From Deltaproteobacteria bacterium (lineage in GTDB: Bacteria; Desulfobacterota; Syntrophia; Syntrophales; JACQWR01), in NCBI GenBank assembly GCA_026388415.1, contig JAPLJV010000021.1:1-40870 (forward strand): a stretch of DNA of 40,870 nucleotides. Direction: 5' to 3'. The position numbers and the translations under genes were made by a program. The notes under the pieces were generated by a model. It had not been told where the DNA came from and ran no database searches. It worked only from the letters and a program-made list of their open reading frames with translations. Of the stretch, positions 2,191 to 39,354 are shown piece after piece (position 1 is the stretch's first letter; the number at the start of each line of letters is the position of its first letter).

Positions 2191-2472
2191 CTACTTGCGT
2201 TTGTCAACCATTTCTTTGAGTTCTTTGCCCACTTTGAAAAAAGGCAATTTCTTGGGTAGAACCTTGATATTATCGCCCGTCTTCGGATTCCTGCCCGTAT
2301 AGGCGCCGTATTTTCTCACCACAAAGCTTCCGAAGCCGCGAATTTCAATGCGGCCGCCATTCTTTAGTTCATCTGCAAAGCCTCTAAATATCAGGTTTAC
2401 AACGTCAATGGCTTTTTTTTCTGTCAGATTTTCTTTTTTACTCAACTCTTCAATAAGTTCTGATTTATTCAT
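2191..2472 (-). CDS. HU/IHF-family DNA-bending protein (IHF beta-like)
   Basis: This 93-residue protein matches the HU/IHF family across its length: an N-terminal helical dimerisation region, 'GGRIEIRGFGSFVVRK', and the DNA-intercalating arm 'YTGRNPKTGDNIKV' with its conserved proline. The 'NKSELIEELSKKENLTEKKA' start and 'FFKVGKELKEMV' end resemble IHF subunit beta more than HU. It would bend DNA as a dimer in the nucleoid. AGGAGG sits 7 nt before the ATG. It is the last gene of the minus-strand block after rluB but has its own promoter-like sequence in the 141-bp gap. A second, more HU-like paralogue is at 5878-6150. Confidence 0.93.
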   Translation of the reverse strand: MNKSELIEELSKKENLTEKKAIDVVNLIFRGFADELKNGGRIEIRGFGSFVVRKYGAYTGRNPKTGDNIKVLPKKLPFFKVGKELKEMVDKRK

Positions 2473-17025: not shown

Positions 17026-17329
17026 ACTGATACCTCAACAGGAAAAATATGCAACTCTCCTTCTCAGTCTATAATTCTACCCATTTCCGGGTAGTTAAGC
17101 AAGATGTCTTTCTCCCCCCTGATAAAAACATTAGTTGGACTATTTTGGGGTTGCGTATAATCGCCCGTAATGAGCAGTTTTGGAAGGGTGATTTTTCGGA
17201 TGAGCGGGGGCCGAGCAGTCCTTTCGATCATATTCTGGTGGCGGCTTGCGTCGGAATACTCAGATAATCTTTAATAGGTAATATACCCCAGGCATGTGGC
17301 TACTGCCTGAGGTACTATTGTAGAAATAC
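17026..17329. other. Intergenic region without a recognisable gene
   Basis: I see no convincing gene. It holds a TATAAT (17156-17161) with a poorly spaced TTGGAC, and a small hairpin (CAGGCA/TGCCTG, 17289-17309) that could end transcription of the 129-aa gene on the minus strand. Confidence 0.4.
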
Positions 17330-17719
17330 TCAGGCGGTAGTTTCCACACTGGGCACATCAGGCGCCGGAGGCATTGCGACAGAGATCTGCGCCATATAAC
17401 GCTCTATGTTGCTCTGAATTCTCTCTTGGGCAACAGACAGGCCTTTGCTATCAGGGTGCTCAGCGCTTCGTTCAGTTAGTTTTTCAAACGCCTGCGTCAA
17501 CCCTGCCGGAGCCGTCAGCGGTCTTCCACGCTCCGCTCCATCAATCTTGTGGGTCTCGATAGGAAAATCTTGCCGGCTGCTATTGCCTTCCTTACTGTCA
17601 CTGTCAAAAACGCTGGACGGAACATTCATGAACTGGTTACTCGCTCTTGCCCGCGCACCAGAAGCCTTCGCGTGGCTTGGCAGGGTATTTCCGATCTGAT
17701 CAATAGTAGAAACTTGCAT
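17330..17719 (-). CDS. Hypothetical 129-aa protein behind a sigma54-type promoter
   Basis: I do not recognise this protein. It starts 'MQVSTIDQIGNTLPSHAKAS', is polar and Ser/Ala/Pro-rich, has a probable amphipathic helix at about 75-115 ('GLTQAFEKLTERSAEH', 'SVAQERIQSNIERYMAQI') and no signal peptide or membrane segment. The start is well supported: AAAGGAG lies 6 nt before the ATG at 17719, and the upstream part of the open frame crosses the promoter. The sigma54-type promoter suggests control by an enhancer-binding activator, for example in a motility, surface or nitrogen/stress regulon. Function unknown. Confidence 0.72.
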   Translation of the reverse strand: MQVSTIDQIGNTLPSHAKASGARARASNQFMNVPSSVFDSDSKEGNSSRQDFPIETHKIDGAERGRPLTAPAGLTQAFEKLTERSAEHPDSKGLSVAQERIQSNIERYMAQISVAMPPAPDVPSVETTA

Positions 17720-17756
17720 GGCAAACTCCTTTCCGGTATTTAATATTATATTTAAC

Positions 17757-17772
17757 AGCAAGTTGCATGCCA
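17757..17772 (-). promoter_or_regulatory. Sigma54 (RpoN) -24/-12 promoter
   Basis: The minus strand reads TGGCATGCAACTTGCT. The GG (-24) and GC (-12) dinucleotides are exactly 10 nt apart, and TTGC is intact; this fits the TGGCAC-N5-TTGCW consensus with one change. It lies about 38 nt upstream of the ATG of the 129-aa gene. Confidence 0.7.
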
Positions 17773-18186: not shown

Positions 18187-18231
18187 TCTCCTCTGAAATA
18201 GCAATATCTTATCAAAATAATGGAGGACGAA

Positions 18232-18564
18232 ATGAAATTTCATGGCAAGTCTTTCCCCTTAGCGTCCTGGGCGTTATTTTTTCTTTTTATTTCATCGTTA
18301 ACACTTACGGGTTGTGGGAATAATTCCACGGCTTACGACCCTCAAGCCGAATACGCGAAAGCGTGTGCAGACGCCGCAATTGTGACGCCAGAAAAAATAT
18401 CCAGAAACCTGACAGCAATCACACCTGACAACAATGACCTCATCTGGGAAAACAACGTCGTGGGACTGAGTGAATTTGTCGTACATGGCAAAAAATCCGA
18501 TGGGAGCAAAATATCGGTGGGAATTAAAGCTGTGACACAGACGACGGCATATTTCACCAGTTGA
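18232..18564 (+). CDS. Small hypothetical lipoprotein
   Basis: This 110-residue protein has a lipoprotein signal peptide: a basic start, a hydrophobic stretch 'WALFFLFISSLTLTGC' and the lipobox LTGC at about residues 25-28. The mature part is about 80 residues with several polar and Thr-rich segments and two cysteines. I do not recognise the domain. The start at 18232 has GGAGG 5 nt before it; the frame opens four codons earlier. It has its own strong promoter and appears monocistronic. Confidence 0.7.
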   Translation: MKFHGKSFPLASWALFFLFISSLTLTGCGNNSTAYDPQAEYAKACADAAIVTPEKISRNLTAITPDNNDLIWENNVVGLSEFVVHGKKSDGSKISVGIKAVTQTTAYFTS

Positions 18565-19114: not shown

Positions 19115-20232
19115 CTATTGCCATACTATACCGCGATGAGTTGCGGGAATATGATTTTGGACCTGGCCATCCCTTTCGCGGTGACCGATATGAAATATTC
19201 CCCAACTTTCTCAAGGAAAGAGTCCCGGAAGAAGACAATTACCGAATAATAAAGGCAATACCTGCAACCGACAGTGATCTTCTCCTAATCTGTAGCAAAA
19301 ACTACATAGATTTTACCCGTGAGTTCTACAAGGCTGCCCATGCAGGAACGACATTTCACGGTGATTTTGGCCGCTACCAGAGCATGGACAATATGCCGTT
19401 TGATACTCCCGGAAAATTGGAAGAGGCGGCCAGGCTCATCATCGGCCAAGCCAAACTCGGATGCGATCTTATTCAGCAAGGCGCTTATCAGAAAGCGGTT
19501 TCTATTGGAGGTGGCGTACATCACGCAACAGCCTCTTATGGTGAGGGGTTTTGTCTTTATAATGATGTTGCCTATGCAGCGCGTTACCTGATAAGCGCCT
19601 ACAAGCTCGAGCGCGTACTGATCATAGATACGGATGCCCATGCCGGCAACGGCACTTGCGATTATTTCTACGATGACCCCAGAGTGCTTTTCATAGACCT
19701 GCACCAGGACCCTCGTACACTCTACCCGGGTACCGGCTTCGCCGAAGATATCGGTACCGGTAACGGGAAGGGATATACCGTCAACGTTCCCCTACCGCCA
19801 GATGCGGGATACGATTCCTATTGCCACATTTTCGATGAAATCGTCGAGCCACTGGTACGGGCATTTAAACCCCAGTTCATTATCCGTAATGGCGGTTCCG
19901 ATCCACACCGCGATGATAGTCTGACCAACCTTGACCTTCCCATACGCGGTTTCCGGATGATCGGCGAGAAGGTCAGGTGCCTGGCGGACGAAATGTGTCA
20001 GGGCAGGGAATTAGACCTGATTGCCTCCGGCTATAACGAACACATCCTTCCTTACTGCTGGCTTGCATTGATATCAGGCCTTGCAGGCTGGAATATTGAT
20101 GTTGAAGATATTGGAACCGCGTCACAAGCATCCGGCAAAGATCCCGCTTTTGATCGGATCAAACTGGTTGCAGCTCAAATTAAGAACATCCTGAAACCTT
20201 ACTGGAAATGTTTCCAAACAACAAATCTCTGA
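19111..20232 (+). CDS. Histone deacetylase-fold amidohydrolase (AcuC/HDAC-like)
   Basis: This 373-residue zinc amidohydrolase belongs to the arginase/deacetylase superfamily. The active-site His pair is H137-H138 ('GGGVHHATASYGEGFCLYND'), the zinc ligands are Asp175 and His177 ('IDTDAHAGNGT') and Asp264 ('GGSDPH'), and Tyr308 ('ASGYNE') fits the transition-state tyrosine. The usual DVHHG is DAHAG here. The family includes acetoin-utilisation AcuC, acetylpolyamine and protein deacetylases, so the substrate is open. The start at 19111 overlaps the Mut7-C stop by 4 nt; the frame is open further upstream but that part is Mut7-C sequence. Confidence 0.9.
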   Translation: MTIAILYRDELREYDFGPGHPFRGDRYEIFPNFLKERVPEEDNYRIIKAIPATDSDLLLICSKNYIDFTREFYKAAHAGTTFHGDFGRYQSMDNMPFDTPGKLEEAARLIIGQAKLGCDLIQQGAYQKAVSIGGGVHHATASYGEGFCLYNDVAYAARYLISAYKLERVLIIDTDAHAGNGTCDYFYDDPRVLFIDLHQDPRTLYPGTGFAEDIGTGNGKGYTVNVPLPPDAGYDSYCHIFDEIVEPLVRAFKPQFIIRNGGSDPHRDDSLTNLDLPIRGFRMIGEKVRCLADEMCQGRELDLIASGYNEHILPYCWLALISGLAGWNIDVEDIGTASQASGKDPAFDRIKLVAAQIKNILKPYWKCFQTTNL

Positions 20233-20291
20233 TCGTCGTTACAACAAGAGGGTTCGTTGATTCATTCACTCGGGATGAAAGGTGGAAATGC

Positions 20292-20320
20292 TTGACAGCG
20301 GATTTCCAGTTCTGTAGAGT
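20292..20320 (+). promoter_or_regulatory. Sigma70-type promoter for the 84-aa protein gene
   Basis: TTGACA, a 17-nt spacer and TAGAGT precede a leader of about 150 nt. The leader opens with a small hairpin (TGCAGG/CCTGCA, 20320-20338). Confidence 0.6.
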
Positions 20321-20474
20321 GCAGGTGCGCTTCCTGCAGTAAAACGTCGCCCTTGAAGAAAATGCTGGATTTCGAATGGAAATGAGTGATTTGGAAAGGG
20401 CTTTACTGCATCTTAAAAGGTCTGAAATACTTGGGTGAACTTTTATCAAGCATTTAAAAAAAAGGAGGTTAGTC

Positions 20475-20729
20475 ATGCAATCCAGTGCGAAGAATACCGT
20501 AAAAAAAATCACAGAAAGCATGGTGTCCATTAAAACCGTTGACGGTTCTCTGCTGCGAGGAAAGATCAATCTGGGGGATGAAAATAGGGTGTCCGATATC
20601 TTTACCAAATCGCTCAATACTTTCATCGTTCTGTCTGACGTATTTAGCCAGAGCGGGGAAAGCAAGGTCATGATCGTCAACAAGAACCATATCGTCTGGA
20701 TCGAACCGGAAGAAAATGCCGCCGCCTGA
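20475..20729 (+). CDS. Conserved small protein of unknown function (DUF6812-like)
   Basis: This 84-residue protein is real by its perfect AAGGAGG ribosome site 6 nt before the ATG, its sigma70-type promoter and its own protein-like composition. The core 'VSIKTVDGSLLRGKINLGDE' then 'VSDIFTKSLNTFIVLSD' and 'KVMIVNKNHIVWIEPEE' looks like a small beta-barrel, resembling a family of short bacterial proteins I associate, without certainty, with DUF6812. The fold reminds me of Sm-like or PRC-type barrels. No function is known. It is followed directly by a decayed transposase. Confidence 0.75.
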   Translation: MQSSAKNTVKKITESMVSIKTVDGSLLRGKINLGDENRVSDIFTKSLNTFIVLSDVFSQSGESKVMIVNKNHIVWIEPEENAAA

Positions 20730-20735
20730 CCCTGT

Positions 20736-20986
20736 GTGAAGGCTCCTGCACTGTTTTTCCCGTTACGTACAAACAACGTCCGAAGGTTAATAGGTGTTTC
20801 ATCAAGACCTATATATCTGGAAAGGCTGAGGAAGGTCTTTATCCAGGAGGCGGTTCCGCGGAACAAATACATGCCCGGAGCCTTCATCGCCATGCGAACG
20901 TTCGGCGATTTCCTGGAATTCATCCCCATTGGCACATCCCCGTGACGGAACGATGTTTCGATGGCAGAGCAAAATCCATTAGTTGA
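20736..20986 (+). pseudogene. Remnant of an IS91/IS801-like (Y2/HUH) transposase
   Basis: The frame at 20736 reads '...LRKVFIQEAVPRNKYMPGAF' then 'IAMRTFGDFLEF' and stops soon after. If one base is restored at about 20921, the next frame continues 'FHPHWHIPVTERCFDG'. Together these reproduce the 'PGAV..IQTFGDFL.FHPHLH.LVTDGCF' block of Y2 transposases (PF04986 type), including the HUH-like HPHWH. Only about 80 codons are recognisable, and the second frame ends at a TGA at 20984-20986. The 5' part and the relaxase tyrosines are missing, so it is dead. Confidence 0.68.
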
Positions 20987-21277
20987 AGTGGTAATCATCT
21001 CGTCAATTCTGAACTCAAAGGTGCTGACTCGTGGAGACATTTTCGGGTACATCTATATTCTTCTGAAGGACTTCTCGATTATTACCAAAAGAAAGCTGCT
21101 ATACAAGCGCATCAGTCGCCGATCACGACTTCGATAAAATAACCATTTTGCCATATTAATACAAGTAGTTAATGCTGCGGTTTACTGTTGTGGACCTCCG
21201 GCAGTTGTGATAGCATGCTCGCCAGATGAGTAACTTATATTTACTGTTATCAATGCGATAACTGCGGAGGCCACATG
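20987..21277. other. Intergenic region upstream of cmk
   Basis: This stretch follows the transposase remnant and may contain more of its decayed sequence, with a stop-containing frame continuing to about 21137. I see no intact gene or RNA. Confidence 0.35.
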
Positions 21278-38209: not shown

Positions 38210-39265
38210 CTAAGCGAGGACTCTTATGACCCCGTCCGCCGCAGCGACGACTTCCCCGACAATGGCGGCTTCTGTGATGCCTTTCTGATGCATTTTTTCA
38301 AGCAATTGCTCCGCGTCATCTGCAGGCAAAGCGATAAGCAATCCTCCTGCCGTCTGCGGGTCAAAAAGGATATCCAGCAACCAGGGAGGACAGGCGGAAT
38401 CAACAGCGATCATCGGTAAGCGGAACTGTTTATTGCGGTGGAGACCGCCCGGTACGATGCCGCTTTCCGCCAGCCTCTGTACCCCGGGGAAAAATGGGAC
38501 TTGGGAGGCGGATATAATCATCGAAAGACCGCTCCCCTCCATCATCTCGCAGGCATGACCGAGGAAGCCAAAACCAGTGATGTCTGTGGCGGCATGGACA
38601 TTGCCGGCTTCAATCATCAGCTCGGCCGCCTGTTTATTCAATCGTGTCATGGAGCTTACCGATATAGCCGCCAATTCATCCTCGACCATACCCCGCTTCA
38701 GCGCCGTAGAAACAATGCCCGTCCCCAGGGCCTTGGTAAGAATCAGCTTATCCCCTGCTTTCGCTCCCCTGTTCAGCAAGACCTTGTCCGGATGAATCAC
38801 ACCGGTAACAGAAAGGCCGTATTTCAGTTCAGCATCATCCACACTATGACCACCGACCAGTAATACTCCGGCTTCCCGCATTTTTTCCAACCCGCCGCGC
38901 AATATATCGCGCAGAATCGAAATGTCCATCTTGCCGATGGGGAAGCAGACCACATTCATGGCGGTCAGGGGTTTGCCACCCATGGCATAGACGTCGCTGA
39001 GCGCATTAGTCACGGCAATCTGGCCGAAAGTAAAGGGGTCATCAACAATAGGTGTAAAAAAATCAATCGTTTGCACAATTGCAAGGTCATCGCGGAGTTT
39101 GTAGACGCCCGCATCTTCGGCATGCTCCATACCGACAATCAGATTCGGATCAGCAATTAGCGGCAAGTCGCGCAATGCTTCCTTCAGGTCGCCCGGACCT
39201 ATCTTGCATGCTCAACCAGCGCCGTGCACTGTTTCTGTCAGACGTTTCGTAACGTTCTCGATCAT
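38210..39265 (-). CDS. selD: Selenide, water dikinase, a selenocysteine-containing SelD
   Basis: SelD makes selenophosphate for selenocysteine and selenouridine synthesis. The frame must be read through a UGA (39212-39214). From the ATG at 39265 the N-terminus is 'MIENVTKRLTETVHGAG', then Sec18, then 'ACKIGPGDLKEALRDL'. The G-U-x-x-K-I-G-P-G-D-L motif is the SelD active site, with Lys21 the second catalytic residue. The rest ('TIDFFTPIVDDPFTFGQIA', 'GGHSVDDAELKYGLSVTG', 'TDITGFGFLGHACEM', 'DPQTAGGLLIALP') is typical; total about 351 residues. AAGGGTGAA lies upstream. Without recoding, the gene would be annotated about 30 residues too short, lacking its catalytic Sec. Confidence 0.95.
39175..39214 (-). 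promoter_or_regulatory. selD UGA codon and candidate bacterial SECIS hairpin
   Basis: Starting 11 nt after the UGA, AGGTC and GACCT form a stem with the loop CGGGC (39186-39200). Outer ATGC (39206-39209) and GCAT (39175-39178) can extend it across internal loops. The placement immediately 3' of the UGA is as expected for a SelB-binding SECIS. Confidence 0.7.
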
Positions 39266-39354
39266 GGAATATTCACCCTTCGTTTAATTTGGTTGATCGT
39301 ATCCGGAAATTGTAGTATTTGCAAGAGCGTCTTCAAATATCAAATAACGCCCAT

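What the first reader, a model, noticed from the sequence alone, without database searches (positions are those of the whole stretch)
17330..17772. Orphan 129-aa gene behind a sigma54-type promoter
TGGCATG-N4-TTGCT with the exact 10-nt GG-GC spacing lies 38 nt before a well-supported start codon (AAAGGAG). The protein has no family I recognise. A sigma54-type promoter on a solitary small gene is unusual and suggests regulated use, for example in motility, surface attachment or stress.
Basis: partly seen in the sequence, partly recalled or inferred. Interest (0 to 1): 0.52.

Follow-up and report, generated by a model that had tools for sequence, protein, structure and literature searches.

The report
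Sigma54-driven small helical-hairpin protein gene
A small stand-alone gene of unknown role really does sit behind a sigma54-type switch, and its two detectable relatives carry the same switch, but such genes are ordinary in this bacterium, in which no flagellin gene and no flagellar export core gene was found.

Summary
On the minus strand, TGGCATG-CAAC-TTGCT (17757-17772) ends 37 nt before the ATG of a 129-codon gene (17330-17719) with a good ribosome site. Only 3 of 20,000 shuffles of the 120-nt upstream stretch score as well. The genome has rpoN and 14 strong enhancer-binding-protein ATPase domains. The promoter is conserved: the only two convincing relatives among 155 genomes of the order (both in one genus, not syntenic) have a -24/-12 site whose GC ends 50 and 37 nt before their start.

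The protein matches no Pfam, NCBIfam, PHROGs or PADLOC family. Its model is a disordered N-terminus plus a confident two-helix hairpin of about 45 residues, the part shared with the relatives.

Sigma54 sites on small stand-alone genes are not unusual here: 13 of 45 sites, against 1 of 25 control sites, precede plausible starts, among them ammonium transporters, pilins and small exported proteins. Flagellar motility is very unlikely: no flagellin or FlhA-type gene found. I read it as a lineage-restricted, signal-induced cytosolic accessory protein acting by protein contact; that function is inferred.

The parts
17330..17719 (-). 129-aa protein gene (stop codon included), start ATG at 17719
   Evidence: relatives L003 and L004 support the start and the coding nature
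17375..17506 (-). codons 72-115: predicted two-helix hairpin, the part shared with the relatives
   Evidence: pLDDT 80-86 in the full-length model; about 94 over the hairpin in the core model
17726..17732 (-). AAAGGAG ribosome-binding site
   Evidence: sequence
17757..17772 (-). -24/-12 sigma54-type promoter TGGCATGCAACTTGCT; predicted transcription start near 17746
   Evidence: counterparts in L003 and L004
17745..17773 (-). overlapping sigma70-like match GTGGCA-17-TATAAT (rival or second promoter)
   Evidence: 10 of 12 consensus bases; 5 such sites in the region against 3.1 (sd 1.9) expected
17294..17349 (-). stable RNA hairpin that takes in the stop codon; possible transcript end or stabilising element, without an obvious T run
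   Evidence: -29.2 kcal/mol for the folded stretch, z -3.35, 1 of 200 shuffles as stable; not called as a terminator

Best explanation
A real, stand-alone protein gene transcribed by sigma54 RNA polymerase from a -24/-12 promoter, silent until an enhancer-binding protein (one of about 14 in this genome, which one unknown) receives its signal. Its product is a small soluble protein with no recognisable export signal or membrane segment: about 70 disordered residues, then an amphipathic two-helix hairpin, then a short disordered tail. The hairpin most likely docks on a partner protein, so the protein acts as an inducible adaptor or modulator in a nutrient- or envelope-type response, not as an enzyme, a flagellar part or an exported protein. 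Shown by computation: promoter, its conservation, rpoN and activators in the genome, a predicted hairpin, no flagellin or FHIPEP gene found. Inferred: dependence on sigma54 in the cell, the docking role and the response it serves.
For: Promoter; present in 3 of 3 family members. rpoN: G000:C4, E 7.4e-64. 18 PF00158 matches, 14 of them at 180 bits or more. Other sites of this pattern in the genome precede AmtB twice, pilin-type proteins, LpxC, BON and Metal_resist/LTXXQ proteins. Family relationship: a profile from the two relatives alone finds this gene at E 7.9e-6 among 8,019 ORFs, and 0 of 5,000 shuffles match either pairwise score. Hairpin. No membrane-type hydrophobic stretch and no cysteine. 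Not flagellar.
Against: No transcript data. An overlapping sigma70-like TATAAT match exists. No shared activator-binding motif or IHF site was found upstream of the three genes. The fold is a generic hairpin with no significant structural match. Neighbours of the relatives differ from those here, so context gives no function. The exact site word is not enriched genome-wide.
Confidence: 0.55

Rival explanations
1. The gene is transcribed (also or only) by the housekeeping sigma factor from the overlapping GTGGCA-17-TATAAT, and the sigma54 look is incidental or blocks it.
For: Perfect TATAAT and 10 of 12 bases in all.
Against: Such sites are expected by chance (3.1 per region, 5 found). By eye, L004 has no TATAAT at this place and L003 only TATATT, while the -24/-12 site is present in 3 of 3.
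Confidence: 0.1
2. A flagellar or type III exported regulator of the FlgM kind (disordered front, helical back, sigma54 timing).
For: Small size, disordered front, sigma54 promoter; some letters of the core recall FlgM (recalled, not a search hit); needle-type hairpins recur among the insignificant fold matches.
Against: No Pfam family of this kind for any of 3 members even at E 10. Flagellin and the FHIPEP export protein were not found in this genome though present in G001, G004 and G023. The fold matches with the core model all have E above 0.8.
Confidence: 0.04
3. A piece of a mobile element or phage, recently arrived, whose promoter is a borrowed host signal.
For: Patchy distribution (3 of 155 genomes of the order); the stretch between M48 and the S1 gene differs in G001.
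Against: No relative in viral contigs, phages or plasmids; no integrase or phage gene among the window genes scanned.
Confidence: 0.08
4. Not a protein gene: a chance open frame behind a promoter that makes a small RNA.
For: Codon-position G+C is not clearly gene-like (58, 50, 52%); stable hairpin at the 3' end.
Against: Good ribosome site; the encoded core is kept in two relatives whose open frames, starts and ribosome sites are also sound; no Rfam family at this place.
Confidence: 0.05

Closest known systems
Sigma54 (RpoN) regulons of Geobacter sulfurreducens and Desulfovibrio vulgaris
   Same: Same promoter type (consensus quoted as mrNrYTGGCACG-N4-TTGCWNNw in PMC2725144, passages read); many unknown genes (63 of 196 there; 8 operons of unknown function in the Desulfovibrio table, PMC4641369, passages read); nitrogen metabolism and pili among the functions there and, by ammonium transporters and pilins, here.
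   Different: I did not find this protein in the passages read; the flagellar branch is missing in this genome.
FlgM anti-sigma28 factor
   Same: Small, disordered front, helical back (recalled).
   Different: No Pfam match; no flagellin or export protein found in the genome.
Type III secretion needle proteins (MxiH, PrgI)
   Same: Two-helix hairpin; they recur in the fold lists.
   Different: No significant E-value; no FHIPEP export protein found in the genome; long disordered front.

Membership tests
sigma54-dependent promoter | GG-N10-GC with -24/-12 consensus | tested here: met
sigma54-dependent promoter | rpoN in the genome | tested here: met
sigma54-dependent promoter | enhancer-binding activators in the genome | tested here: met
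   14 matches at 180 bits or more, 4 weak ones; none on the window contig
sigma54-dependent promoter | conserved before the starts of related genes | tested here: met
   2 of 2 relatives
sigma54-dependent promoter | upstream activator or IHF sites | tested here: inconclusive
   none found; motifs of these activators are unknown
sigma54-dependent promoter | transcription lost without rpoN | not testable with these tools
   needs an experiment
FlgM or flagellar exported protein | profile match | tested here: not met
   3 members, E up to 10
FlgM or flagellar exported protein | flagellum in the organism | tested here: not met
   0 flagellin, 0 FHIPEP in G000
Type III secretion needle | export apparatus in the genome | tested here: not met

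The most novel reading that the evidence does not exclude
A new family of sigma54-locked adaptor proteins whose hairpin feeds back on an enhancer-binding protein, its sensor kinase or sigma54 polymerase itself, so that the small gene is the output and the brake of one activator circuit.
Probability: 0.1. Interest if true: 0.5.

Novelty: new member of a known kind. Interest (0 to 1): 0.22.

Why it matters
It turns a single promoter-like word into a conserved promoter-gene unit and defines a small protein family that the libraries searched here do not hold. If true it adds one more unknown output to the large sigma54 regulons of these bacteria, and one that cannot be explained by flagella. It is a modest addition: sigma54 control of small unknown genes is already common.

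Tried and rejected
Rejected: flagellar or type III role. Rejected relatives: L022 Holophagaceae is a chance frame opposite another gene; L029 is a toxin-antitoxin-type ORF by eye; L042 is a direct-repeat array that looks like CRISPR; L043 had a site and a weak match, but its ORF reads by eye as a methyltransferase-type protein and its site lies inside the gene upstream. The remaining weak hits were mostly partial, E 0.001 to 0.1; alignments of nine of them in all were looked at. No hits in viral contigs, plasmids or phages, none useful in PDB sequences (one at E 0.81). Synteny gave nothing: the HD-GYP/M48 pair is kept in G001, G004 and G023 without the gene beside it. No shared upstream word of 8 or more bases in all three. 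Paper searches 'sigma54 / small proteins / promoter / Deltaproteobacteria' and 'RpoN-dependent / small protein / unknown function / intrinsically disordered' found 0 papers. I did not name the organism.

Limits of the tests: the scoring weights are mine, set after I had seen the sites in the relatives by eye. The rule was set after viewing 30 of the 45 sites; it was applied unchanged to all 45 and to all 25 controls. It leaves out some likely real targets (the AMP-binding gene L070 and the pilin-like L059, where a long frame covers the site) and lets in at least one doubtful one (L129). The two relatives are of one genus.

Full report
What is there. The minus strand of the window holds a 129-codon gene (17330-17719) with AAAGGAG before its ATG and TGGCATG-CAAC-TTGCT at 17757-17772. 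The next gene on the strand, an M48 protease with TPR repeats, starts about 300 nt further on, and a stable hairpin takes in the stop codon, so the gene stands alone.

Is it more than chance. The exact word occurs 3 times in the 2.79-Mb genome against 2 for the backwards pattern, which proves nothing. With up to one mismatch there are 45 against 25. I asked which of these lie 30-220 nt before a start with a ribosome site and are not under an open frame of 200 aa or more: 13 of 45 against 1 of 25 (the rule was set after seeing 30 of the 45). The downstream genes make sense for sigma54: two ammonium transporters, type IV pilin-type proteins, LpxC, a BON protein, a Metal_resist/LTXXQ protein, a PAS-LuxR protein, a response regulator and small Ala/Lys-rich or secreted-looking proteins. 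The genome has rpoN and 18 activator-ATPase matches, 14 strong. In the 120 nt before this gene only 3 of 20,000 shuffles give a site as good.

Conservation. A first search of 60 relatives gave two borderline matches with E about 0.001. Both are small proteins (196 and 192 aa) of one genus in another family of the order, sharing with the window protein a core whose invariant positions include GL, EKL, RS, P, GL, A, I, N and ER. A profile from those two alone finds the window gene at E 7.9e-6 among 8,019 ORFs, and 0 of 5,000 shuffles reach either pairwise score. Both have a sigma54-type site whose GC ends 50 and 37 nt before their start, GGGCACGGTAATTGCT and GGGCACAAAGTTTGCT, reached by 9 and 11 of 20,000 shuffles. 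A profile search of all 155 genomes held of the order (the class search returned 155 genomes with the same strong hits) found no further strong member; nor did 395 genomes of the phylum. So the promoter and the gene travel together, although the neighbourhoods differ.

The protein. It matches nothing in Pfam, NCBIfam, PHROGs or PADLOC (the only Pfam line, at E 0.082, is for another member of the alignment). The model of the whole protein has a disordered front and two helices at 72-87 and 92-115; the core alone models at mean pLDDT 87 with about 94 across the hairpin. Structure searches give only generic hairpins and other matches with E of 0.19 or more. There is no membrane-type stretch and no cysteine.

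What it is not. Flagellin and the FHIPEP export protein were not found in this genome but are present in the three relatives tested, with completeness given as 98.1%. That makes a flagellar or type III role in this organism very unlikely.

Most likely mechanism. An activator protein bound upstream senses a signal, contacts the sigma54 polymerase waiting at 17757-17772 by looping of the DNA, and opens the promoter; the product is a small soluble protein whose hairpin contacts a partner. The first half rests on the evidence above and on established knowledge of sigma54; the second half is inference. I put the promoter being real at about 0.9 and the adaptor-type role at about 0.5 or a little more, hence 0.55 overall.

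Known or new. Sigma54 control of unknown genes is common: passages of PMC2725144 give 63 of 196 RpoN-affected Geobacter genes as hypothetical or unknown, and a table passage in PMC4641369 lists 8 operons of unknown function. I read passages only, not whole papers. The family itself is not in the libraries searched, so I file it as a new member of a known kind.

Noticed in passing
window 38210-39268 (-): selD (selenide, water dikinase): the called ORF starts late; upstream it reads on through one in-frame TGA in the motif GAGUACK, so SelD looks like a selenoprotein here.
   Followed up: partly
window 18220-18564 (+): Orphan 114-aa lipoprotein-like gene behind a near-perfect sigma70 promoter TTGACA-17-TATACT; no family found.
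   Followed up: no
window 17294-17349 (-): Strong RNA hairpin that includes the stop codon of the gene, without a T run.
   Followed up: partly
G000 (the window's own genome): No flagellin and no FHIPEP gene found, while a relative in the same family (G001) has both: apparent loss of flagella.
   Followed up: partly
L042: Direct-repeat array of about 72-nt period that looks like CRISPR; it produced spurious profile hits.
   Followed up: no
window 20180-21052 (-): 290-aa ORF without Pfam or NCBIfam match.
   Followed up: no
window 2191-2472 (-): Integration host factor / HU-type protein (below the curated cut-offs), of interest because IHF often serves sigma54 promoters; no IHF-like site was found before the gene studied.
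   Followed up: no
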